Shown piece by piece: positions 1,346 through 64,000 of a stretch of DNA of 64,000 bases (positions within the stretch are counted from its first letter, which is position 1; each line of letters starts with the position of its first letter). The notes under the pieces are model-generated. The model was not told the origin of the DNA, did not search any database, and saw only the letters and a list, made by a program, of their open reading frames with translations. The stretch is from positions 62,001 through 126,000 of the forward strand of contig NW_020312036.1 of NCBI RefSeq assembly GCF_002999335.1, written 5' to 3'. Source of the DNA: Cyclospora cayetanensis. Taxonomy: Eukaryota > Apicomplexa > Conoidasida > Eucoccidiorida > Eimeriidae. A program made the position numbers and the translations under genes.

Positions 1346-2602
1346 ACCGCGCGCCGTGTCTCCGCTCGTGCAGCGACTCCGTAGAGGAAATAAACCCCTG
1401 TGACGGGGAAGTGGCGAGCGATGATAGAAAGTGTGTGGCTGTGCACAGGCGCCTCGCACTCTTCTTGCTGCTGTGTTTTATTAGAAACCGAAACAAAAGC
1501 GGAGCCATGTGACCCTCAAAAGCACACTCGAGAGACGGACTCTGATATGTATATATATACATGTATATATCTATATACGTATACATATATACACAATTAA
1601 AAAAGACGCCACCGCACACATCCTTTTTAGCATCGATACAGAGAGGAGGGCCCCTCACCATCCATGAGCACAAGGGTTTCGAAGACCCCTGCTCCTTGTG
1701 CTGACACATCGAGAGGCCCCAGCACTTTGTAGAGTCCAGGCAGGGGGCCCCTTGAAGCAGAGAGTTCGAGCAACCAGTGCAGGCCGGAGTTCTATGTATG
1801 TAGAAAGTATCCTCTGTCCCTCGAGGATTGTCCCCTCCGCCTGACGGGGTCCAGCCCCCTGCCACTCCGGCTGTCGCTCGCTGCACCCCGTAGCTGAGCA
1901 CCTAAAGGCCTTTTAAGGGAGTCTTTGTGCGGAAAGGAGAGGTGGGGCCAACAGTGCCTTTAAAGAATTGGCCCCCTTGACGAAACGGGCAGTTCGCAAG
2001 CAAGCTACGGAAGGGGGGCGTGTCACGCCAATACATGGTAAGGAGCAAAGGGGGTCGGCACTGCAGTGGGTGGGAGTGCAGGAGGCAGCGGCAATCGATC
2101 TACGGCTACGGAATCCAAGAAAGCTCAGGGACCGACCCCACGGGAGGGCAGGAGGAAAGAGCGAGGGAGGGGCAGTGGGATGGAGAGCGCCCGGAAGTAG
2201 GAGCCAAAGCAAACGCCCTAGGGCAAAGTTTCTGGGGACTGCGTTGTTTGGGGTGTATGTACACCTTCCCTACTCCGTACTCATACCCCTAAACCCCGCG
2301 TGCCAGCAGCGAAAGGCCACATGGCCCGTCATTCCCCCGCGACCCCACCAGGTAGCAAAAGCGGAGAGCCGCTCGGCAACAGCAGCAGCAGCAGCAGACG
2401 TCGCTTCAGCTGGCTCTACAGGAAGTAGTACACCGCAGAAAGGCCACCAGCAGTTGCAGCACCAGCGGTGCAACACAGACGCTCCCCATCAGAGCTGCAG
2501 CAGCAACGGCAGCAAATCCCCCAACTTCAACCCCGTGGTCCCCCCTCTTCCTCCCCCTCTCCCCTGCTTTCCCCCCTCAGCACCCTCGATCCTCACCAGC
2601 CA
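1346..2602. other. intergenic, convergent 3' ends of RCC1-like and PDI-like genes
   Basis: This is the space between two convergent genes. It contains a short TATATG/TATACA microsatellite at about 1547-1594, GGGCCC-rich patches (about 1742-1751) and pyrimidine-rich sequence near 2540-2580. An open frame at about 1968-2714 on the plus strand has no ATG start and no recognisable product, and it overlaps the end of the PDI-like gene. Both 3' UTRs probably lie here. I see no RNA gene. Confidence 0.5.
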
Positions 2603-4492
2603 TCACAACTCCTCTAGAGCCGAGGCAGGCCCTTTGCCGCCATTGCTGCCTCCCAAGTCTTTCGCCATCAGTGCAAGGGGATCGAAAGAAGGGATGCCCC
2701 GAACCCTGGAATGAAGCCACTGAAGCATATCGGCTGTAGTCCGATCCCCTATATAAAGCAGCGGCTCCTGCTCCCCCGTTCTGTACAAGTAAAGCGTGGG
2801 ATATCCGCTTATCGCAACGCCGTCTACCTCATTCCGAGTGGCGTCGATGCGCGCGATGATGAGGCCCGGCACATCGGCCACACGCGCCGCCAGCTCCTTG
2901 TACGCGGGCTCCATCTTGCGGCAGAAGCCACACCACGGAGCATAGAACTCTACGAGAACGTTCGCCTCCTGTCGCACATCTGAAGCAAAGGTAGATGCGA
3001 CAAGCGTTCGAACACGGCCCTTCGGTTCTGGCACCTCCGGGGGGGCTTCCGAGCGGAAGTACGGCGCAAGCTGGTGTGTGAGCACCGCCTTTATGAAGCC
3101 ATCAAGAGCACGAGAGAAGGCCTCTTGGCTGCCGCTGCTCTTGTCCGATCCTGGCGCAGGGAACGGCAAAGAGGGAGACGGTTTGTACTTCTGTGTGGGG
3201 TGGTGAGGCCCCTCCGACTTCGGACTCACGTACAAAAGGCGCACTTGCGGAAGGGACTCCTCCTCGATTCCTAGGAGGCTAAGAAGTTGCTTCTCGAAGC
3301 GCGTTGTGTTCCCGGATACGGCAGCGACAACGTTTGCTCTATGAGCCTCTGCCTGAGCGCGAAAGGCAGCAAGAAGGGGGTCCTTAGGTCTGGAGGCCGT
3401 TGCCTGCTTGAGCAGAACCCCGTGCTCCTGGCTGTCCAGCAGGAGCAGGAGCTTCGGCCTTAGATCCTTGAAGAAGGTGTTTCCAATCGTTTCCATGTCG
3501 AAGAGGGAGACAACTGGGAATAGCCACTGCCGTACAAACAAACGGAGCTCGTTGACTTCTCCCACAGAACCCCTGTAGATGTGGGCCGCTGTCTCATCCT
3601 TGTGAGGCACGAAGACTACAACAAACGGAGGAACGAGTTCTTTCAACGCTGCCTTCCCGCGGCGCTCAGCTGCAGGCAGTCCAGGCAGCACGTGCGCATC
3701 GATCAGATGCTTGATGACGTCTGGATTGGCGGTGTCTCCAAAGAATACTTCTTCGCCAAACGCTCGTGCCACCGACTGGAAGCCCCCCTTGTTGTAATCC
3801 GGAGGAAAGGCAGCCACCACTACAACGTGGCCGTCCTCCCCCTCGCCGCGTCTGCTGCTGTTAATGAGCTCATCTAGATGAGCAGTCGACACGAGCTGCT
3901 TGTCTCGATCCACCCTAAGGTCTACCCAATGAACAAGGTTCGTCCTCTCACGGCGGCCCTCGTAGAGCTGTGCCACCCCGTCTATGTAGAGCCTAATCGT
4001 CGGATAGGCCTGGATAAACTCGTTGTTGCACGTATCTTCATGCTCCGTGCAATCGATCTTCGCAGCAATCACCGGAGGCTCATGGTGAGACAGGAGCTTC
4101 GCTGCGGCGTCCAGCTCTGCGAAAGCAGCGCGGGACCAGTAACACCACGGGGCATAGTACATGACGAGCACGAGGGAGTGCGCAGCCATGAATCCGTCAT
4201 AAGAGTCGCCAGACAAAGCAACGGCGCCAGAATCCATTGCGAACTTCTGATCAGCAGCGGCTCGCTCCTTCTGAGCCTCCGTGTAGACACGACGCTCACT
4301 GCGCAGTCCTTCTTCTTCAGCAGCCTCTGGTAGGGAGGCGGCTGCGGAAATTGCAGGAGCAAGGCAAGACAGGGAAACCACAAGCAACAAAACTTGCGAA
4401 AGGCGTCGAAGAACACTCGGGAAAAGGAAAGCTTTTGCAGGGGCCCGTGAGGGCCCCGTGGTTCCCAGAACGGGTGACGGGGGGCAGGCCAT
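2603..4492 (-). CDS. protein disulfide isomerase-like thioredoxin-fold protein
   Basis: This is a single-exon gene of 629 codons from the first ATG (4492). The frame is open further upstream but without an ATG. A basic segment then a hydrophobic stretch (about residues 27-50, with LLLVVSLSCLAPAIS) is a signal peptide or anchor. An N-terminal thioredoxin domain has YAPWCYWS at about residues 113-120 and the cis-Pro motif AYPTIRLY. A degenerate middle thioredoxin-like region follows. The C-terminal domain has FYAPWCGFC at about 516-524 and cis-Pro GYPTLYLY. The second site keeps both redox cysteines (CGFC). In the first site the second cysteine is Ser (CYWS), so it can form mixed disulfides but not cycle like CGHC. 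The protein ends in ALEEL, only loosely like an ER-retrieval signal. It probably works in ER oxidative folding. Other thioredoxin-domain membrane proteins are possible. Confidence 0.85.
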   Translation of the reverse strand: MACPPSPVLGTTGPSRAPAKAFLFPSVLRRLSQVLLLVVSLSCLAPAISAAASLPEAAEEEGLRSERRVYTEAQKERAAADQKFAMDSGAVALSGDSYDGFMAAHSLVLVMYYAPWCYWSRAAFAELDAAAKLLSHHEPPVIAAKIDCTEHEDTCNNEFIQAYPTIRLYIDGVAQLYEGRRERTNLVHWVDLRVDRDKQLVSTAHLDELINSSRRGEGEDGHVVVVAAFPPDYNKGGFQSVARAFGEEVFFGDTANPDVIKHLIDAHVLPGLPAAERRGKAALKELVPPFVVVFVPHKDETAAHIYRGSVGEVNELRLFVRQWLFPVVSLFDMETIGNTFFKDLRPKLLLLLDSQEHGVLLKQATASRPKDPLLAAFRAQAEAHRANVVAAVSGNTTRFEKQLLSLLGIEEESLPQVRLLYVSPKSEGPHHPTQKYKPSPSLPFPAPGSDKSSGSQEAFSRALDGFIKAVLTHQLAPYFRSEAPPEVPEPKGRVRTLVASTFASDVRQEANVLVEFYAPWCGFCRKMEPAYKELAARVADVPGLIIARIDATRNEVDGVAISGYPTLYLYRTGEQEPLLYIGDRTTADMLQWLHSRVRGIPSFDPLALMAKDLGGSNGGKGPASALEEL

Positions 4493-7400
4493 ATTGGTAG
4501 AGGAGTCAAAACGCGAAGAAACTGAGCGAGCGAGCACAGTAGATGGAGCAGCTCTAGAGGCTCGCGGCGAAGGCAGAGAGACGAAAGCAGTTGCAGGACC
4601 GTTGATAGCACGTGGGTTGCCCACAGCAGACGAGGAGCCTCTATGTCCGCAACGCCGCCACAGCCGTCACTCAGATAGCACAAGAAGACAGAAAAGCCAA
4701 AGGGAGTAAGAGAGGCAAGTACAGACAAATCCAAGGAGTGTTCCGACCGACCCAGAAATGCGGTCTGGAGAAGAGAGGTTGAGAAGGAAGAAGAGGAAGA
4801 GAAGAGGGCGCTGAAGGTGCCCGCGCCACTAAAATGCACGCAGGACAAATCGAAAAGCACGTAGTGGCTATTTTCTAAATACTGAAAAGTACATAAAAAC
4901 AAAATATCATGAAATCGTTCATGAAGGGAGAGGACACCCGCCGGCGACACAGAGTCACACACATAACACTACATGCACCTCAGCCCATAAAAGCAGCGAA
5001 TGGAGACATAATCCAAATTATTTCGACACTTCCCTCTCGATTAAGAACAAAAAGATTTTATGCTAGCAGAATTCTATAGGACTGAAACGCTAGAATATTC
5101 GAAGGATTTGTCTCTATGCTTTTCCTGAACTTCTACAGCAGTCTCGCGGGGCCCTTAGGGGGCCCTGGCCGGTAACTTGAATAGGGCCATCTGCTCTTCC
5201 GCCGAATCAAGGAGACTGCTGTGTCGTACTCTCCCTCACATGCTAGTCTCTGCGGTTGTTGCTTGAGAAGATGATTTGCTTTACGCCTACGTGTTAGCTC
5301 GCAAAACTTATGCCGGCCTGCTCACGCAGGGGCTGCCCCTGATCCTTCTCCGGCCTCCCCCTTGTCCCATGCAGATGCCACGATCACCTATGCTTAGCAG
5401 GTCTGGCAAAAAGAATGCCCATATGTAGCCTGTGTTCTGCAGGCCAGAGCTCCCGGCGTCCTCTTCTTGGGGGGCTCTTGCAGGTACAGGTCTGGCGGCT
5501 CCGCAACGTCTGGTCAGGCCGCGGGGGGAAGCCGAAGTAATATGCACTTTTTGCTGTGCATTTCGGGCAGCACTTTTCCTGACTGTTCATAGAGTGTGTT
5601 GGTCGCTCGAACTGCTCTCCCCTCCGCGACCCTCTAAAAGCTGCTTTGCAATAAATGGGGACTTGGTTTGAGGCGAAACTCAGTGTAGTGGGTATTCAAA
5701 AAGTCTGCAGGACAGCTGGCCAATCAATGTGTGAAGACGGGAGCATGTTTCTTCTTTCTGTTCACGCGCTATAGAAGAAGAAGCAAGCGTATGCTGGGTA
5801 TTGGGGTCTAGCAGGCTACACTACACTTAGGCGCCTTCGAATACTGTTGTTCAGTAACAATTACCTATGAATTGACGGCTTGGTATGGCTTTTCGTTCGT
5901 ATTATTTCGTGCGGAGCAATTTGGTGGCTCGGGACGTCAATAATCGATTCTATGTCCGCGCCAATCGTAATGGGTAACTAGCTGGGAATGCTCGTAATGT
6001 TTTAAGGGCGCACTCTAGCTGTCGTTTTTCACCAATGTCGAAACCCTGAGGAGCGAGGCCGGGGAAAAGGAGGAAATCTATTGAAAGCACACGGAGTTTG
6101 TATTGAGGCTGGTTCTAACGGTCTACCTGCAACGACCACAGATAAAGCGTTACCCAGTATTGAAATGTAGAAGTGCGATCTTTTCTGCATCTCGTTTATG
6201 ACAAGGCTAAAGGTGTAGTCTTGTGCTATCGGCTTGCAACTGATGCAATTGGTAGCCTCTATCAGGCTTGGCTAAGATCATGGCACAGATGTATACCTAA
6301 TGGTACCCTGCAAGCCCATTCATGTGCTGAAGGCGCTTTCTCACTACCTTCTGCTTTCTGCATATGTGCTGAGGACCTCCACTATGCTTTTTCAGCCGTT
6401 CATGTTGTGGATCCAGTCCAAAATTCCCTTCGTGCACGCTGCTGTAAGCCAGGATGGTCTTTGCTACGGATATCAGTCGCAAGAGTCTTAGCGAGGTTGA
6501 GTGACAGTACTATACAGTCAAAAAGGCATTCTTGGAGAGCCCAGCCTGCATTATCTGCTTTCTCCAGCCGTGTTGGCATCTGAAGGAGAGGGAGGTTTTG
6601 ATGCTTTGGCTATTTACAGAACATGCTTGGGTTTAACATAGGAGCTCGCAATATCTACAATATCATTCGAGCATTCTCGCTGGCGGATACACTAGAAATG
6701 ACCAGCACGGCACAGAAGCCTTGTCCAGCTATCGCAGCACCATGTGCGTGATTGGACACACGGCGCATACCTCTTGTGCAAAAACCCTTCAACTGGCCTG
6801 TCTGGCGGCCAATGTTGCTTACTCAGTACTCTTAAAAGCGCTGTGCTCTCTTTTTGTCTTGAGCTCTTGTGTCGTAGTGCTTTATCTGACAGGTTTATCA
6901 ACTGCCTGAAGAGCACCCACATCTTTTCGCTGTCTCTTCCCTCGCTGCCTTTTCCGAGCCAAGGCACTCCGCTGCCTTCTGCAAGAGGGCAGCAAGCACG
7001 GTATTCCACAACCAACAGAGAATCAATGGATAGTCTTCAGCTGCCTGGCATCAAGAAGTCAATCCTCCGTGGATATTTGCATCAAGCGAGACTGCTGTTG
7101 GCGTGAAGCCCCTTATAGCGTCTTCAGAATGCCAGGGGCTGTAGGAGGGCTACAACGATACCCCTACAAAACTGTGGCTGCTTGCAGCTACTTGGACGAG
7201 CAGTGCTCAGACAGCACTGCCCAAATGGCAGATGAGCCTCGACAGTTCAGGATGCACAAGGTGTAGCTAGTTACAAGGCCTCTCTAGCTCAGTTCGTGCA
7301 TTGCTTGCTGTCTTTATTCATGGTGAGGTATACAGGCCAGCACACACGGCAAGACTAAGGGTAGTCTTGGGGTTACAAAGACGGTTACCAAGCTGGCCAA

Positions 7401-8578
7401 TGCGTCGCCTTGTTCAAAAAGCGCCTCGTTCCCTAAGCAATATTGCTATTTGGACTTGCAAGTTGAACTTGCGATGCACGAACAGCGAGTAGGAATAGGA
7501 CTTCGGCTTTGCATCTAGCCTTCGATCCTTCCTTGGTAGACTGACGAAAGGTTTCTTATGTGGACTGCATCTCCGCGCCAAAAATTTTCTTTGTTTGCCT
7601 TCAGAGAGAGCCGTCTCACTGTGGGTTGTAGCTGCTCGGACTCTAGGGGTGTATATATGACCAATAGGCAACCAAGTGACTTGCTGAGGCGGACTCCAAC
7701 TGACCACGTGAATGATGTAGCTAGCCAGTCGCATCAGGGGTCTGCAGACTACAGCTTGCCCTGCATATTTTAGGAAGCAAACAACAATTGTTCCCCGCTG
7801 TGTGTTAGCTTGAGGCTCTCTAGAGGCATTGGGAAACCCTGCAAGGGCTAAGGGGGACTGTCCACATTTGGTAGCCAAGTGGAGCCACGTACGAGCCGTC
7901 CGCTAGCTGCCTGTACAGCCACAAAAAAACTGCTTACTAGCAGTAAAAAAGCCACAGACGCAGCAGCAACTCGCTGTCCCTGTCTTCTCCTAAACCCATT
8001 CCCGGCTGCGTGTGGCGCAACCTGAAAGAAAAGTGGCCGCTTGAGGTGCTTTTCGCATTGCGAATAGAATTTCACACCGCTACTGCAGTTGCCCATACAC
8101 GCAGGCGAATGACCGCCAAGTAGGCCAGATGCGTAGATGTCTCAGATCAGGTTGTGCGTGAATAGCCACGAAGGCCGTTGTAGGCATACGCATCGGCGTA
8201 CGGTGACTCTTCAAGTTCCCCGCTGCAGGGGCCGAAAAGGGGAAATTCTACGGCTGGCTTTTTGATTCCCAGCGTGGCACATCTAGCTGGCAACAAAAGT
8301 GCACAAAAACGCACGAGAGCTCTACAAGACTCTCAGCCGCACCTGACTGCGTAAGAGCAGGTAGAAAAGAGGGGCTCCTCCGGTGTCTCCGGTGGCCTCT
8401 CACGAAGGGGCGAGTACAGCCTCAAACGGATGTGTGAGTTCACTTTGATTTAGTTGAGGTGCGATGGTAAAAAGGAGAAGAGAAGGGCAGTAACAGGACG
8501 AGGCAACGCAGTTTTCTGCCCAGTGCTGTGCACTGGAGGGAGGCTCGAAGTGCAGACCACCTAACGTTGTTTGCACCC
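4493..8578. other. gene-poor region between divergent/unknown units
   Basis: I recognise no gene here. The part next to 4493 is probably the PDI-like 5' UTR and promoter. The region is less G+C-rich than the genes, lacks CAG runs, and only short frames are open. Two are worth recording. One (minus, 7848-8096) begins MGNCSS, which fits an N-myristoylation plus palmitoylation signal, and contains a hydrophobic run; it could be a first exon or chance. The other (plus, about 6173-6583) is longer but has no family resemblance. A GGGCCC-rich inverted patch lies at about 5149-5165. Confidence 0.45.
7848..8096 (-). CDS. possible small protein or first exon with MGNCSS N-terminus
   Basis: An 82-codon frame starts with an ATG. 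It begins MGNCSSG, the pattern used for N-myristoylation at Gly2 with palmitoylation at Cys4, a common dual acylation signal in apicomplexans. After a basic stretch there is a hydrophobic run (AAASVAFLLLVSSFFVAVQA) that could be a membrane segment. Dual acylation and a transmembrane helix together are unusual, and the frame is short with no recognised domain. A chance frame is quite possible. Confidence 0.18.
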   Translation of the reverse strand: MGNCSSGVKFYSQCEKHLKRPLFFQVAPHAAGNGFRRRQGQRVAAASVAFLLLVSSFFVAVQAASGRLVRGSTWLPNVDSPP

Positions 8579-56071: not shown

Positions 56072-59000
56072 ATGCGTCACTCCACACCCTCTGGAGGTAG
56101 GACGTCCCCCCCATCCCTTCCCAGAGGCTCCTTTTCGGGTGCTCACTTGCCCGCAGATGCCACCAGGAGGCCCTTCTTTAGGGGGCCCCCCCCTCAGACC
56201 CCCATCGGTGTGGGGCCCCCCCTCTCCCCCCTGCCTCCCCCTGGATTCGCATATGCCCCCCACACACCTCCCCCCCCCCTATACTCTCCAGTTGATTGGC
56301 GAGTATCTCCTCTTGACCTGAGGCGGCTGCAGCAGCAGAACCAGCAGCAGCAGCAGCAGCAGCCTTACCAGCAGCAGCAGCAGCTCCGACGTGTGCACCA
56401 GCAGAACCAGCAGCATCGGCAACAGCAACAACAGCAGCTGGCGCAAAACGCCGCTCTCCAGGAACCTCCACAAAGATGGGCATCCTCCCCACAACAGCAT
56501 GCGTGGCAGCAGCCTTACCAGCCGCAGCAGATGCCACAGCAGCTCGTAGAGGGCCTTACATCACCTTGGTCGGAGATGCAACAACCCACGGAGACTCAAC
56601 AACTGCCTCCCCAGCAACACTTAAGGGGGCTGAACTTCCTGCAAAAGAACCGCCCCCAGGCTTTTCCTAGTAAACGTCTGCAATCGCAGCAACAGCATCA
56701 GCAACAGCATCAGCAACAACTACTACACCCTAATCTGCAAGCACAGCAACAGCATCAGCAACAGCATCAACAGCAACAACTACTACACCCTAATCTGCGC
56801 TTACAGCAACAGCATCAGCAACAACTACTACACCCTAATCTGCGCTTACAGCAACAGCATCAGCAACAGCAGCAACAACAGCAACAACTACTACACCCTA
56901 ATCTGCGCTTACAGCAACAGCAACAGCATCAGCAACAGCAACAGCAACAACAGCAACAACTACTACACCCTAATCTGCAATTACAACAACAACAGCAACA
57001 ACAACATCCGCAGCTGGCGTGGCATGGGGTGTTACCATCTGCGCAGGAGGGCAGCCTTCACTGGCACGGCCGAGAACAACAGGCGCAGCGAAGGCGTAAT
57101 GAGGAGTCGAATTTCTTTCAGTGGAAACCTCAGCGGCAGCAGTTACAGCAGCTAGAGCAGCAGCAGCAGTTGCAGCTAGAGCAGCAGCAGCTAGAGCAGC
57201 AGCAGCAGCAGCAGCTAGAGCAGCGGCCGCCTCTACGCAGTCGCGAAGGTTCTCCAGAAGCTGGTGAGATACCGTACTCGGAGTATGAAGAAAGCACAGG
57301 GGAGCAGCACACAGAGCAGCAGCGTGCAGCATTAGGCGTCGGAGCAGAAGCAGCAGCCGCAGTTTCGCTTCATGCAGCAGCAGAGAGAGGCGATGGAGAG
57401 TTCGTCGGGCCTAGTGGGGAGGAGCCGCATGTCTTAAGTCTTGCGGATTCCCTCTCCACCATCAGCAGCGATGAATTGACAGCAGTCGAGGAGGATTTAG
57501 AAGAGTTGGATGTGCATGCAGCAGGAGGGCAGGCTGGCTTTTCTGAGGCGAGCGTCGCAAGGGAAGGAGGCCAGGCTGTAGCGACAGAAGCATTTTTCGC
57601 AGCAGTTTCTGCTGGTGGGGGGGGGAGGGAAGCTCCCGCTGCGCCTGAGGCTGCTGTTTCTCCTGCTGCTCCTGCTGTTGCTCCTGTTGCTGCTGCTGCT
57701 GTTGCTCCTGCTCTTGTTGCCAATGAGAAGGATATGCAGCACCACCGTTTGCAGCAGCGGGAGCCGCTGCCACTGCTTGGGCGTTCTCCTGCTGCTGCTT
57801 CACAGTGCAAGCAGCAGCAGCAGCAGGTGCTAGAGCACCTGCAGACACACCAGAGGCTTCCAACGGAGGCATTTGCACGGACAGACACTATTCCTCAGGT
57901 TCCTGCTACAGACGCAGAGGCTGTCAATGCAGCAAAAGCAGAGCCTACAACTGCAGCCGAAGGAACTATCAAGCAGGAGGTGTCAAGGCATGCACTCAGA
58001 ACGACTTGTGTAGCAGAAGAAAAAACAGCAGTAGAGCCAGCGCCAGCAGCAGTTGCAGTAGAATCAGCAGTAAAAACAGCAGCAGCAGCCGTAGCAGCAT
58101 CATCACCAGTACAACCAGCAGCCGCAGAAACAGGAGCTGCGTCACGATCCGCAGCAGAATCACCCTCTGCAACTCTGTCAGCAGAATCACCCTCTGCAAC
58201 TCTGTCAGCAGAATTGCCCTCTTCAACTCCATCAGCAGAATTACCCTCTTCAACTCTGTCAGCAGAATTACCCTCTGCAATTCCATCAGCAGAATTACCA
58301 GCAGCAGAGACAGCGCCCGCAACACGAGCAGCAGCAGCGGTAGCGATGGTTCTGTCGGGAGAGACTTCACAAGACGAAGCCTCGACAACAGCAGCCATTC
58401 CAGCAGATGAAGCAGCAGCAGCAGTGCATGCCTGCAATCCCCGCTTGTCTGTTGGGCGATCTTACTCCTTGCAGCAGCTTTGCAAGAAGCAACGACGAGA
58501 CTTGCAAAATACGCGGGTGGCTATTATTGGTGCAGGCCTCTCGGGGATGAGGTATGTAGAATGAGAGGTAGAATGAGAGGTAGAATGAGAGGTAGAATGA
58601 GAGATAGAATCAGAGGTAGAATTAGGGGTGTTGGCTTGAAGAGGTGTAACAGTAGTTGCACTTGCAGAGAATATTTTTTTTGCAGCCACAGGTCTTCAAA
58701 ACTCAGGCGTCGCGTGCTGGTTAGCCTCCGCTGGAGGGGATTTCCTAGGCAGAGCATTCACGTGTGTGCAGCAGGTTCACGATGCAGTGTCGATGCGACA
58801 CGGAGGGAGGGGTGTTATGACTTGTGCAGCGCCGCACGGCTCTTGTCTTCCTTTGGAGTCCAAGTCGAAGTCTTTGAAGCTCGGGGAAGAATTGGTGGGC
58901 GCTGTTGCAGCGTGCAAGTTGGTGGCATCGACGGCATCGATCTTGTAAGGACCTAAGGCAAAGCGAAGGGAAGAAGGGCAGCTACTAGCCAGGGAAAAAA

Positions 59001-62000
59001 CATTTCCGGGCAGACAGACGGTGGAACGATTTTAGCGTCTGGCTGCCTCCTTCGAGCCGCTGGTAGTCTTCAGTCGAACGGGGAAGGGAGGGAAAAAGAA
59101 AGCCCGTAGATCGCACGCGCAGCTGTAGCTGTAGCTGCAGCATGCGCTTCTCAGTAACTACTGCTTCGTTCTGTCAATGTGCTGTACTACATAAATATAT
59201 ATACATAAATTTATATCTACATCTATGTATATTTATATAAATATATTAACTTTTTTGCATCGCCGGCCGGTAGAGCATGCGTCCTGCGCATGCGCAGTAT
59301 GTATGCACTGCAGGGAGCATCATGGATTCATGGCATTGAGGGCAATCCGCTATACCGAATTTGCAGGGATTACGGGCTGCTGGTTTACGGAGATGATGAT
59401 CGCGATGTACGGCTGCCGAAAGCGCAGATGCAGCATTGCAAACAGGGGGGCAGAAATAACGCAGAGGGGGAAAAAGGGGGAAAGAAAGAGAAGGGAAGAA
59501 AAGAACCAGCTAGGCAGTTCTGTAGTGTTTTTTAAAAAAAAGCGCTTTTCTTCTTCTCCCTGGCATCCCTGCACGTGCTTTGTTTCGTTGTTGTAATCGT
59601 TGCTGCTGCAGATGGATATCCCTGTGCCGCTGTACAGCCTGGACGGTTCCTTAATGGACCCTGAACTTGACAGCTGGTGCGAAGCCACCCGAGCGCAGCA
59701 GCAACAGGATGTCGATGCCTTTCTTTGGGGGGCATGCAACAAACTGTGCGTTCATCTCAAGTGTGCAGAGATGTACAACAAACAGCAGCAGCGCGTGCTG
59801 CACCAGAACCGCGTGCTGCAGCGGCTGCAGCAGCAGCAGCGGCGGCTGCAGCAGCAGAGTGTTGCTCAGCGCAGGCAGGGAAGCGGGCTGACGCTCACGG
59901 GAAGGGCCACAAAGCGATCTATTCTTTCGACGTTGCCTCTTCAGAAGCAGCAAATATCACAGAAGCGCTTTCGCGCGGCTTCGAAGCAACAGCAGCAGCA
60001 GCAGCGACAGCAGCAGCCGCAGCAGCAGGTGTGTATGCATGCGTGCCGAGAGGCGCTCAAGGTGTCTATAGGCCAGTACCTCTCGGAGAAGAATGACATC
60101 GCTCTTAATCGAATGGAGGCGGAAGACAGGGGTCAGTCTGAGGAACAGCGCATTGTGGGCTTTGCTTCAAATTGCGGCTGCTGCTCCCTCTTTCCAGCGG
60201 CTGCCTGATTCGCTTGCTTGCTGCCGTCATGCTCACCAGCGTAGAGAGGGCTCAATCCCTAGAAAGCGAGAAGAGAAGAAGCGTAACGGGTGAGGCTGCT
60301 GCGATGCCGCTGCTGGTGCCTCTGCAGCGGCGGGGAGAGACTGGAAGGCCTTACGGGATGCTCGACGACGCTTGTTAGAATGGCATATTTCCAACACTGA
60401 ATATTCCACAGGCGCGGACGCTCACGGCATCTGTCTTGCCACATGGGATCAGGTAGACCATCACATAGTTGCAGTTGCCTCTGCTTCTTGTACTGTCTCA
60501 GTGGAGGACGTAGCAGGGCGGGGTGTGTATGTGTGTATATCTGTATGTGTATTGTGTATCTGTATTTGTATTGTGTGTCTGTATCGTGTATCTGTACTTG
60601 TATTGTGTATCTCTATTGCGTATGTGTATCGTGTATTGTGCATATGTATTGTGTATGTGTATTTGTATTCTGTATGTGCATTGTGTATGTGTATTGTGTA
60701 CCTGTATTTGCATTGTGTATCTGTATTGTGTATCTGTATTGTGTATCTGTATGTGACTCATGATGACGCTTTTTGGACTGTGGCCGAGTGGGTGTACAGA
60801 CACCGTTTTTTGTGGGATCTTCATGTTTTTAGTCTTTATGCATAGCTTTTTGACGAAGGTGTTTTGTCTGATTCCGTGCTTTTGGCTTCCCCTCTGCGTG
60901 CAGGATGATGTGACGGGTTTATCCGGCCGTCATGTGATGATTTTTAGAGGATATAAGTCAATCGTTGAGTGTCTAGCTGCGCCACCCTCTGTTGTGGCGG
61001 CAGCAGGGGCAGCAGCGCCCCCTCCCCCCGGCCCTGCGGCAGCTGCAGCAGGAAGCGCAGCAGCGGCTGTGCGGCTGCTGCTCCGGCATCCAAAGATTCA
61101 TTTGAATACGCCTGTTCGACGGGTAGCAGTGACAGAGGAAGGAGTTACTCTGCAGCTTTTGGCTGGGCAGGAAACTGCGCCGTTCGACTATTGTCTTATT
61201 ACGCTGCCTCTAGGTCAGCTGGCTGTGATGGTCTTGTAGTAGTTTTTGGTGTTGGTGTTTTTGGTGTTGGTGGGGTTGTTGGTGTTTTTGGTGGGGTTGT
61301 TGGTGTTTTTGGTGTTGTTGGTGGTGTAGGTGGGGTTGGTGGTATTGTTGGGGTTGTCAGTGGGGTTGTTGTTGCAGGGTGTTGGTAACAACCGGTAGCG
61401 TTGTGTTTCCTGATCCGTGTTTGAGCGGGGTGGCGGGTTGCGCAGCAATGCGGAACTGAGGGGGAGGGAAGGGGAGGCGGATGGATGGAGGGAGAGAGAG
61501 AGGATGAAAAGGCTCGTGTCTGAAATTTGATGCATGACTAGAAGGCTTGTGCTCGGGGTGTTTTTTGGGGTGGGGGGCGGGGGGTGGGTGGGAAGAGGGA
61601 GTGGAGAGGTTTGGGCATAAGGGTTTGGTGCATGCCACTGCTGATATCGGAGCAGCTGGTTGGTTTGTTCGGCTTAGCGCGATTCAAAAGGTTTTTTTTG
61701 TGTTTAGGGGCGAGTAGCCTCTGACACCACATCAATGTTTTGCGCCCTCCTTCCTAGAGAAGTGGCTCTTTGTGCACTGTCTGGCTGTGTGCGGTGAGCT
61801 AGCTAGCTAGCTAGCGGCTTGCGTAGATGATGCAGGGGGGCTGTATAGCCTGGCTGCATGCATGTGTATGCGCTGTGCAGGTGTGCTGAAAGCGTCTCTC
61901 GACGCCTACAGCACCGACGGCAGCAACAGCTGCACTGAGACTGCAACAAGTGGGGAGGCATGCGGCGCAGTCTCGGTAGAAGGCAGCGGAGCAGCTGCTG

Positions 62001-64000
62001 ATGGGCAGTGTCTCCCTGCTGCTGCTGCCGCTGCTGCAGCGACAACGGCTGCTGCCGCGCGCATGCTGGGTATGGCGGAGGCGACTATGCATCACGTGGC
62101 TGCATGCGGACTGGAAGCTGCCGCAGCGGAGGCTGCGGCAGCGGCTGCAGCGGGGAGTTGCAGCGGCAAAATGCTGATTCATGGCACAGGGCTAAATACG
62201 GCTGCTGCAGCAAGTGGCGCAGCAGTTGCAACAAATGCTGCAGCGGCTGCTATCGCGACAGTGCGTGCTGCGGAGTCGGGAGCGGCGTACTCCCCTGCAG
62301 CTGCTGCAGCTGCAGGGGAGTATTTGGGGTGTCTGGACAGCTTCCACGAGCTGCCTATCCCTTTGGCGCTTCCAGATCACATTTGCAATCTCATTTCCAC
62401 AGGAGAGGCGTCGTCGAGTGTGGCGGGGCAGCAGCAGCAGCAAGCAGCCGCTGCTGCTGCAGCCGCTGCTGCCGCAGACAAGGCAGCAGCAGCAGCAGCA
62501 GCTGCGATGCAGGTGGGAGGATCGCAAGGACGCTTTTCCACGTGGGCTTTGCAGCACGCAGACTCGACAGCCGCTGCAGCAGCGGCTGCTGCAGTCGCAG
62601 CTCAAGGCGTCTCTCCAGCTGCAGCGGCAAGAGCATCTGCCGTGGCAGAAGCAGCCGCTGCTGCAGCTGCAGAGGCTGCCGTCGCAGCGGGAGAGTCGGA
62701 TGCCATAGCTGCAGCTGCGGCGTCTATTGAGTCGCGAGCTGCTGCCCTCGCAGAAGCAGCAACAAGGCGCATGCAGCAGCTGTTAGATGTCACTCGTGCT
62801 GCAGCAGCAGGCAACCCCACAGAATATGCTGCTTTAAAGGTATCTCCGGGGGCGGCAGCGGCTGCAGCTTCCGCTGTAGATGCTGGCGTTCGTGCAGCAG
62901 TTGCTGCAGCATGCAGCACAGCGCATGCCGCGGTAGAGGGAGCAAAGGCGCGTGCGTGGCATTTGTCCTTTAGTAGGAATAACAGCAGCAGCAGCAACAA
63001 CAGCAGCAGTACGATTGCAGGCAGCAACAGCAGCAGCAGCAACAGCAACAGTACGATTGCAGGCAGCAACAGCAACAGCAGCAACAGCACAATTGCGGGG
63101 AGCAACAGCAACAGCAGCAGCAGCAGCAGCAACAGCAACAGCAGCACGATTGCAGGCAGCATCAGCAGCAACAGTAACAGCAACAGTACGATTGCAGGCA
63201 ACAACAGCAACAGCAACAGTACGATTGCAGGCAGCAACAGCAACAGCAACAGCAATACAATTGCGGGCATTAGCAGCAACAGCAGCAACAGCAGCAGCAA
63301 TACGACTACTCCTACTACCCCCACCCCCACTACCAGCGGGGTGCTTGTAAGCGATTTGAGAGAAGCGAGGTTGCTACTATGCGCGTCTCAGGCTGTGGAA
63401 GCAGAAGGGGTAGAAACGGAAACAGCTGCAGCAGTAGCAGCAACAATGGATACAGCAGCACCATATGCAGCAGCAACAACAGATGCAGCAGTAGCAGCAG
63501 TAGCAACTACAGTAGACGCAGCAGTAGGAGCAGCAGAAACAACAACAGATGCAGCAGCAGCAGCAACAGATGCAGTAGTAGCAGCAACAACAACAGATGC
63601 AGCACCAGCAACAACAACAAGAGATGCAGCAGAAACAACAACAGATGCAGCAGAAACAACAACAGATGCAGCAGCAACAACAATAGATGCAGCAATAGAT
63701 GCAGCAACAGCAACAATAGATGCAGCAGTAGGAGCAGCAGCAACAGCAACAATAGATGCAGCACTAGTAGCAGCAGAAACAACAATAGATGCAGCACTAG
63801 TAGCAGCAGAAACAACAATAGATGCAGCAGCAACAACAACAACAGATGCAGCAGCAGCAGCAGCAGCGGCTGGCAGTAAGGTCGGCTTGGTGGAGTTTGA
63901 TCCCCCTTTGCCTGAATGGAAGCGACATGCAATCCGTGTTGTTGGTATGGGAGCCATCAACAAGCTGGTGATTGTGTTTGATCGCATCTTCTGGCAGACT
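56072..64000 (+). CDS. LSD1/KDM1-type flavin amine oxidase with giant insert, 3' end outside window
   Basis: The exons 56072-58551, 58830-58944, 59314-59406, 59612-60131, 60328-60452, 60904-61213 and 61881 to the edge close in phase at every junction (1921 codons so far; human LSD1 has 852 residues). Exon 1 is mostly Gln-, Ala- and Ser-rich and ends VAIIGAGLSGM, the FAD dinucleotide-binding loop. It continues AARLLSSFGVQVEVFEARGR, IGGRC, then DLGASWIHGIEGNPLYRICR, PLYSLDGSLMDPELDSWCEA and EWHISNTEYSTG, LATWDQDD, VMIFRGYKSIVECL, HLNTPVRRV and FDYCLITLPLGVLK. After about 670 repeat-rich residues it resumes at 63896 with FDPPLPEWKRHAIRVVGMG and LVIVFDRIFWQT. No SWIRM domain is evident in exon 1, though upstream exons may exist. 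It probably demethylates mono- or dimethyl-lysine on histones. A polyamine-oxidase relative is the alternative. Confidence 0.85.
56328..57005 (+). repeat. Gln-coding repeat region, including LLHPNLRLQQQ units
   Basis: CAG/CAA/CAT-rich sequence in exon 1 of the LSD1-like gene. Between about 56700 and 57005 a longer unit recurs six times: CTACTACACCCTAATCTGC codes for LLHPNL and is separated by Gln/His runs of varying length. The unit is therefore compound, not a plain trinucleotide run. Confidence 0.92.
58556..58640. repeat. 12-bp tandem array starting at a 5' splice site
   Basis: Copies of GTAGAATGAGAG, some degenerate, follow directly on the donor (GATGAG before GTATGT at 58552) in the first recognised intron of the LSD1-like gene. 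Each copy recreates a GAGAGGTAGA sequence similar to the donor itself. Confidence 0.92.
60525..60755. repeat. GTGTAT/CTGTAT repeat in LSD1-like intron
   Basis: Imperfect units of TGTATTGTGTATCTGTAT fill the intron 60453-60903, giving a T/G-rich sense strand. Confidence 0.92.
61238..61380. repeat. GTTTTTGGTGTTGGTG minisatellite in LSD1-like intron
   Basis: Units of GGTGTTTTTGGTG, GGTGTTGGTG and GGGGTTGTTG lie just after the 5' splice site at 61214 in the 667-nt intron 61214-61880. Confidence 0.92.
62978..63312 (+). repeat. AGC/AAC repeat coding for Asn/Ser runs with TIAG spacers
   Basis: Within the last LSD1-like exon, AACAGCAGC runs code for Asn/Ser tracts. They are interrupted regularly by ACGATTGCAGGCAGC or close variants, coding for TIAGS. 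Several spacers have the same form, so the unit is higher-order. Confidence 0.93.
63405..63875 (+). repeat. ACAACAGATGCAGCA repeat coding for TTDAA/TIDAA units
   Basis: Repeats of ACAACA(A/G)ATGCAGCA with varying spacers code for TTDAA, TIDAA and VAAETTIDAAL units. They continue to a poly-Ala run just before the amine-oxidase domain resumes. Confidence 0.94.

What the first reader, a model, noticed from the sequence alone, without database searches (positions are those of the whole stretch)
61881..63895. About 670-residue repeat insert inside the catalytic domain of an LSD1-like demethylase
The amine-oxidase domain runs LITLPLG-VLK up to 61891 and resumes at 63896 with FDPPLPEWK. In human LSD1 these two elements (LPLGVLK and FVPPLPEWK) are separated by fewer than ten residues. 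Here one continuous open exon puts about 670 residues between them: Ala-rich, then a unique patch (YLGCLDSFHELPIPLALPDH), then Asn/Ser with TIAGS spacers, then TTDAA repeats. Frame and phase are intact on both sides. Either the insert folds outside a working oxidase or the enzyme has a new regulatory surface. The unique patch is the best place to look for function.
Basis: partly seen in the sequence, partly recalled or inferred. Interest (0 to 1): 0.82.

Follow-up and report, generated by a model that had tools for sequence, protein, structure and literature searches.

The report
Giant conserved-motif loop in coccidian LSD1
In a coccidian parasite, a gene for an enzyme of the chromatin-editing LSD1 family carries a repeat-rich stretch of 668 amino acids where its human relative has 7; two related parasites have a long stretch at the same spot, and all three hold one short, similar segment inside it, which suggests a docking site although most of the stretch is repeat padding of a kind already known in these parasites.

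Summary
Window 61881-64000 is an open exon (continuing to 64351 in my model) of an LSD1/KDM1-type amine oxidase. 668 residues (61892-63895) lie between LPLGVLK and FDPPLPEWK; human LSD1 has 7 there. The coding frame has no stop; the other five frames have 6-29. The catalytic-lysine segment after the insert is intact. Repeat-rich inserts are known in Eimeria. But this one is shared: Besnoitia (499 aa) and Hammondia (513 aa) have one at the same place, against 5-31 residues in 54 other measurable amine oxidases, and two paralogues in this genome have 5 and 14. AlphaFold gives no confident fold for the insert. My reading: an active-looking LSD1 fused to a PHD-like zinc finger, with a surface loop grown into a mostly disordered, partly neutral linker that carries one short conserved, probably docking, motif. 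Shown: gene structure by homology, shared site, motif similarity in three species. Inferred: disorder, activity, docking. Not excluded: pure repeat growth, or partial splicing. No RNA evidence was available.

The parts
56072..58551 (+). exon 1 (start codon assumed): Gln/Ala-rich N-terminal region ending in the FAD-binding GAGLSG motif
   Evidence: open frame, splice model, PDB match from the GAGLSG region on
58830..58944 (+). exon 2, FAD-binding Rossmann part (AARLLSSFGVQVEVFEARGRIGGR)
59314..59406 (+). exon 3, GASWIHGIEGNPLY
59612..60131 (+). exon 4, Gln-rich segment in the place where LSD1 carries its tower
60328..60452 (+). exon 5, LLEWHISNTEYS...WDQ
60904..61213 (+). exon 6, DDVTGLSG...LITLPLG, with its own Ala/Pro-rich insert at about 60979-61089
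61214..61880 (+). phase-1 intron directly before VLK
   Evidence: G|GTCAGC ... TGTGCAG
61881..64000 (+). exon 7 (continues to 64351 beyond the window): VLK, insert, FDPPLPEWK, catalytic-lysine segment
61892..63895 (+). 668-residue insert
61892..62970 (+). Ala-rich half; all four GCN codons used, third position near maximal entropy (1.98-1.99 bits)
62330..62398 (+). conserved patch CLDSFHELPIPLALPDHICNLIS
62972..63340 (+). Asn/Ser stretch with TIAGS spacers, Ser and Asn codons nearly uniform (AGC/AAC)
63341..63895 (+). mostly TTDAA-type repeats, Ala and Thr codons nearly uniform (GCA/ACA), with a short non-repeat start
63896..64000 (+). FDPPLPEWKRHAIRVVGMGAINKLVIVFDRIFW: core resumes, with the lysine in the place of the LSD1 catalytic lysine

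Best explanation
The gene encodes an LSD1/KDM1-type flavin amine oxidase fused to a PHD-like zinc finger. A surface loop directly before the catalytic-lysine segment was expanded in coccidian parasites to about 500-670 residues. Most of the loop is disordered, low-complexity linker that the fold tolerates; in this genome part of it is recent triplet-repeat growth. One 23-residue motif inside it is kept between this Eimeria-like lineage and two Toxoplasma-like ones and most likely works as a docking segment, for a partner of the demethylase or for the enzyme's own surface. Shown here: gene structure by homology, shared position of the insert, motif similarity in three species. Inferred: disorder, catalytic activity, docking.
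For: The core before the insert and exon 8 after it match KDM1A chains best in the PDB; the piece right after the insert is Pfam Amino_oxidase. Same-site inserts of 499 and 513 aa in Besnoitia and Hammondia against 5-31 in 54 other proteins. Motif: in the Besnoitia-Hammondia insert pair the patch is the best 23-residue block (86; next 60 abuts the core, then 38); the profile of those two puts the patch first in this genome's insert (30.5, next 5.0; 0 of 500 shuffled inserts reach it), and 21 of 100,000 shuffles of the patch's own letters reach 30.5; the patch alone finds its counterpart first in the whole Besnoitia (32, next 16) and Hammondia (29, next 17) proteins, against a maximum of 22 in 45,877 windows of other returned proteins. 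No confident fold in the insert (mean pLDDT 38); in a moth LSD1 model (pLDDT 84, 15-residue loop) loop residues 533-535 fall below 50. Core motifs intact. PHD-like part in the same gene: 108 of 220 aligned columns identical to Besnoitia.
Against: Only three orthologues with the insert, two of them close kin. Identity of the patch with Besnoitia is 6 of 23 and with Hammondia 4 of 23. One unrelated window scores 29.0 in 147,992 six-frame residues. The masked local alignment with Hammondia alone is not significant (175 of 2000 shuffles), and the unmasked inserts do not align beyond chance. The patch sits at different depths of the insert (0.22, 0.54, 0.75). AlphaFold gives the patch itself low confidence (blocks of 29-37). 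No partner is known.
Confidence: 0.58

Rival explanations
1. Neutral repeat growth: the loop is merely a site that tolerates insertions, and homopolymeric amino acid repeats expanded there as they do in many Eimeria proteins; the patch is an old loop remnant with no binding role, or its similarity is weak chance.
For: Seven Ala runs of 7 or more in the insert and five Gln/Ala runs elsewhere in the same model; [quoted passage not shown] uniform third positions in the Asn/Ser and TTDAA parts.
Against: Same site in two Sarcocystidae whose inserts have no run of 7 or more of one residue (their DNA was not seen); motif similarity in both; paralogues in this genome have 5 and 14 residues at the junction.
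Confidence: 0.27
2. Part of 61892-63895 is an intron, so that the protein carries a shorter insert or none.
For: Acceptor-like AGs with good pyrimidine tracts lie at 62375 and 62402, inside and just behind the patch, and 18 of 262 AGs in the insert reach the mean of the modelled acceptors. No RNA data were available.
Confidence: 0.09
3. Assembly error or a decayed gene that no longer makes an oxidase.
For: Short-period repeats can be mis-sized in assembly (general knowledge); the exact number of repeat units is untested, so no call supports this directly.
Against: Both sides read through in frame, ten modelled GT-AG introns keep phase, catalytic motifs are kept on both sides, two orthologues share the architecture.
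Confidence: 0.06

Closest known systems
KDM1A/LSD1 (human, PDB 2hko, 2h94, 8q1h)
   Same: amine-oxidase core, WDQDD, catalytic-lysine segment, FAGEHTIR-YP-T-HG
   Different: no SWIRM hit at this gene; tower place is Gln-rich; 668 instead of 7 residues at the loop; C-terminal PHD-like finger
LSD1-PHD-like proteins of Besnoitia besnoiti (P0001) and Hammondia hammondi (P0002)
   Same: same domain order, insert at the same junction, related patch, second large insert after FW
   Different: insert 499 and 513 aa, without residue runs of 7 or more and with 19% and 12% Ala against 34% here; patch deeper in the insert
Perkinsus chesapeaki LSD1 (P0009)
   Same: LSD1 core plus zf-HC5HC2H
   Different: 31 residues at the junction; best patch-profile window scores 8.5 and lies elsewhere
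Homopolymeric amino acid repeats of Eimeria
   Same: runs of 7 or more of one residue (here Ala in the insert, Gln and Ala elsewhere) inside coding exons
   Different: here they sit at a site shared with non-Eimeria coccidia and surround a non-repeat motif

Membership tests
LSD1/KDM1 histone demethylases | flavin amine-oxidase domain most similar to KDM1 | tested here: met
   Pfam PF01593 on both sides of the insert; KDM1A best in PDB for the core before the insert and for exon 8
LSD1/KDM1 histone demethylases | lysine at the place of the LSD1 catalytic lysine (K661, number recalled) | tested here: met
   GAINKLVIVF in the place of GNLNKVVLCF (motif comparison with moth and Perkinsus LSD1; human)
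LSD1/KDM1 histone demethylases | N-terminal SWIRM domain | tested here: not met
   own-genome SWIRM hits at E up to 1 only on contig C343; none in the Besnoitia and Hammondia proteins at E up to 0.01
LSD1/KDM1 histone demethylases | tower (helical hairpin that binds CoREST) | tested here: inconclusive
   Gln-rich segment in its place, low-confidence alignment
LSD1/KDM1 histone demethylases | demethylase activity on H3K4me1/2 | not testable with these tools
   needs an assay
coccidian LSD1 with PHD-like finger | C-terminal zf-HC5HC2H in the same gene | tested here: met
   49% identity to Besnoitia over the C-terminus; Pfam PF13771 at E 0.0013, 19.3 bits, below the curated cut-off of 29.1 in the one exon piece tested
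Eimeria homopolymeric amino acid repeat | runs of at least 7 A, S, Q, L or N in coding sequence (definition in PMC9131526, passage) | tested here: met
   7 runs in the insert, all Ala

The most novel reading that the evidence does not exclude
Coccidian LSD1s, for which no SWIRM domain was found at this gene or in two orthologues, carry their main partner- or self-docking site on a lineage-specific giant loop next to the catalytic lysine: a replacement for the tower/SWIRM mode of recruitment, with the 23-residue motif as the contact.
Probability: 0.25. Interest if true: 0.68.

Novelty: new variant of a known kind. Interest (0 to 1): 0.45.

Why it matters
If the motif is a docking site, it gives a concrete, parasite-specific handle on how coccidia recruit a histone demethylase, and one that human LSD1, with 7 residues in that loop, does not have. 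It also gives a test case for telling function from padding inside Eimeria repeat inserts: a motif kept while what surrounds it changes.

Tried and rejected
Considered and rejected: insert as a general feature of amine oxidases in this genome (paralogues on C383 and C170 have 5 and 14 residues there; C26 reads as a protoporphyrinogen-oxidase-like protein by my judgement, no search). Insert as a known domain: Pfam finds only the core end in the exon piece; the three-sequence patch profile finds nothing in the PDB at E up to 10. Whole-insert alignment without masking: no signal. AlphaFold of the insert exon: too low to interpret, so not searched by fold; the fold search was made with the moth LSD1 model. 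Patch elsewhere in the genome: only itself. Besnoitia patch as genome query: empty and uninformative, nothing passed the first look. Further orthologues: the three protein searches, each limited by length and, to the 7981 candidates sharing most words, returned no protein named as Toxoplasma, Neospora, Cyclospora, Sarcocystis or Eimeria; hits without names were not identified. Junction lengths: of 74 proteins (73 returned plus the model), 58 had both anchors; 16 had none and were left out; Besnoitia was mis-anchored (value taken) and P0062 was mis-anchored and dropped; many of the 54 short-loop proteins are bacterial amine oxidases or moth and butterfly LSD1s, so they are not 54 independent LSD1s. 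An earlier, looser pattern gave four further false long loops and was not used. Papers: listings for LSD1 with Toxoplasma, apicomplexa, Eimeria, MORC/HDAC3 and alveolate, and for names such as TgLSD1 or EtLSD1, showed by title and abstract start none on a coccidian LSD1 protein (one search listed 15 of 78, one search listed 30 of 68); one search found none. Passages only were seen of PMC8785600, PMC10863139, PMC4751559, PMC7564333 and PMC9131526. Reid et al. 2014 is not held and was not read.

Full report
What is there. The window is part of a 1.04 Mb contig of a 43.2 Mb genome. Reading on past the window's end, I modelled a gene with ten GT-AG introns: exons 56072-58551, 58830-58944, 59314-59406, 59612-60131, 60328-60452, 60904-61213, 61881-64351, 64979-65255, 65748-65830, 66031-66146 and from 66707 on, where the last part was not resolved. 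The splice sites were chosen by eye to keep homology in frame; no RNA supports them. The protein is about 2,160 residues up to the end of the oxidase and then enters a PHD-like zinc finger. The core before the insert and exon 8 after it match human LSD1/KDM1A best in the PDB, the piece right after the insert matches Pfam Amino_oxidase, and the LSD1 motifs WDQDD, the NK lysine segment, SRW..DPFARGSYSY and FAGEHTIRPYPSTAHG are present.

The insert. Between LPLGVLK and FDPPLPEWK stand 668 residues (61892-63895). Human LSD1 has 7 there (numbering of the alignment). The coding frame is open while the five other frames carry 6-29 stops, and none of 1000 Markov-1 sequences is open; triplet-permuted controls are open in 24 of 2000 (one phase) and 0 of 2000 (other phase). 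So openness is not just composition, although Ala-coding repeats make long frames easier. The insert has two layers. The Ala-rich half uses GCT, GCA, GCG and GCC freely, with near-maximal entropy at the third position; this fits an old stretch held at the protein level. In the Asn/Ser and TTDAA parts the codons of the repeated residues are almost uniform, as recent triplet-repeat growth would give (the age reading is inference).

Relatives. Besnoitia besnoiti (P0001) and Hammondia hammondi (P0002) carry inserts of 499 and 513 residues at the same junction, without any run of 7 or more of one residue. Of 74 proteins examined, 58 had both anchors; 35 have 5 residues, 16 have 15, and one each 11, 16 and 31 (Perkinsus), 54 in all; the other four are the three coccidian inserts and one mis-anchored protein that I dropped (Besnoitia's value). 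Many of the 54 are bacterial amine oxidases or LSD1s of moths and butterflies. Two paralogous amine oxidases in the same genome have 5 and 14. The distance from FW to GSYSY is also longer in the three coccidia (171, 509 and 518 residues, against 89 in a moth and 107 in Perkinsus), so the catalytic-lysine segment lies between two inserts.

The unique patch. Without using this genome, the best-conserved 23-residue block between the Besnoitia and Hammondia inserts is DALHDVPVNFKLPADILPFLLPA / DALHDVPVDFTFPPDLLPFLISS (score 86; next 60, which abuts the core; then 38). A profile of that region (shifted by two residues) ranks CLDSFHELPIPLALPDHICNLIS first in this genome's insert (30.5, next 5.0); 0 of 500 shuffled inserts reach it, 21 of 100,000 shuffles of its own letters do (maxima 44.5 and 55.0 in two such runs), and one other window in 147,992 six-frame residues comes close (29.0). 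In reverse, the patch alone finds its counterpart first in each whole orthologue. Against this: identity is only 6 and 4 of 23, the masked local alignment is significant with Besnoitia (41; maximum 36 in 2000 shuffles) but not with Hammondia (175 of 2000), the unmasked inserts do not align, and the depth in the insert varies. Perkinsus has no match (8.5). I take the homology as likely, not proven.

Structure. AlphaFold of the exon piece with three sequences gives mean pLDDT 38, so neither the insert nor the patch shows a confident fold. In a moth LSD1 model (mean pLDDT 84, best PDB matches human LSD1) with a 15-residue loop, the junction lies between helix 522-529 and strand 541-543, and residues 533-535 are below 50. 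The insert therefore enters what is probably a flexible loop in an ordinary LSD1, which would explain how the fold can tolerate it. One species was modelled; solvent exposure was not measured.

How it probably works. The oxidase core looks active and the PHD-like finger probably reads chromatin (family knowledge). No SWIRM domain is found at the gene or in the two orthologues, and the tower place is Gln-rich, so the known CoREST contact is doubtful. A disordered loop with one conserved short motif is a usual form of a docking segment (general knowledge); that is my best guess for its role. The rest of the loop in this genome is most simply the known repeat growth of Eimeria coding sequences (PMC9131526 and PMC7564333, passages).

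Verdict. It is a new variant of a known enzyme family, with a testable but unproven regulatory role.

Noticed in passing
L002:4707-5073 (window scale 66707-67073): PHD-like zinc finger encoded in the same gene, downstream of the oxidase; the fusion is also seen in Besnoitia, Hammondia, Perkinsus and three metagenome proteins (P0056, P0057, P0061).
   Followed up: yes
window 56677-57008: Tandem LLHPNL(R/Q)LQQQ-type units (periods of 45-105 bases) in the Gln-rich N-terminal region.
   Followed up: no
window 60979-61089: Smaller Ala/Pro-rich insert in exon 6 of the same oxidase core; by eye not present in the Besnoitia and Hammondia proteins.
   Followed up: partly
window 63995-64000, continuing to about 64240 in L002: Second low-complexity insert after FDRIFW, at a place where Besnoitia and Hammondia have several hundred extra residues.
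   Followed up: partly
L004 about 2600-7640 and L005 about 3200-6140: Two further repeat-rich amine-oxidase genes of the same genome (contigs C383 and C170) without the junction insert.
   Followed up: partly
window 60534-60752 and 61242-61371: Introns of this gene hold long tracts of TGTATCTGTATTG-type and GTTGGTGTT-type repeats.
   Followed up: no
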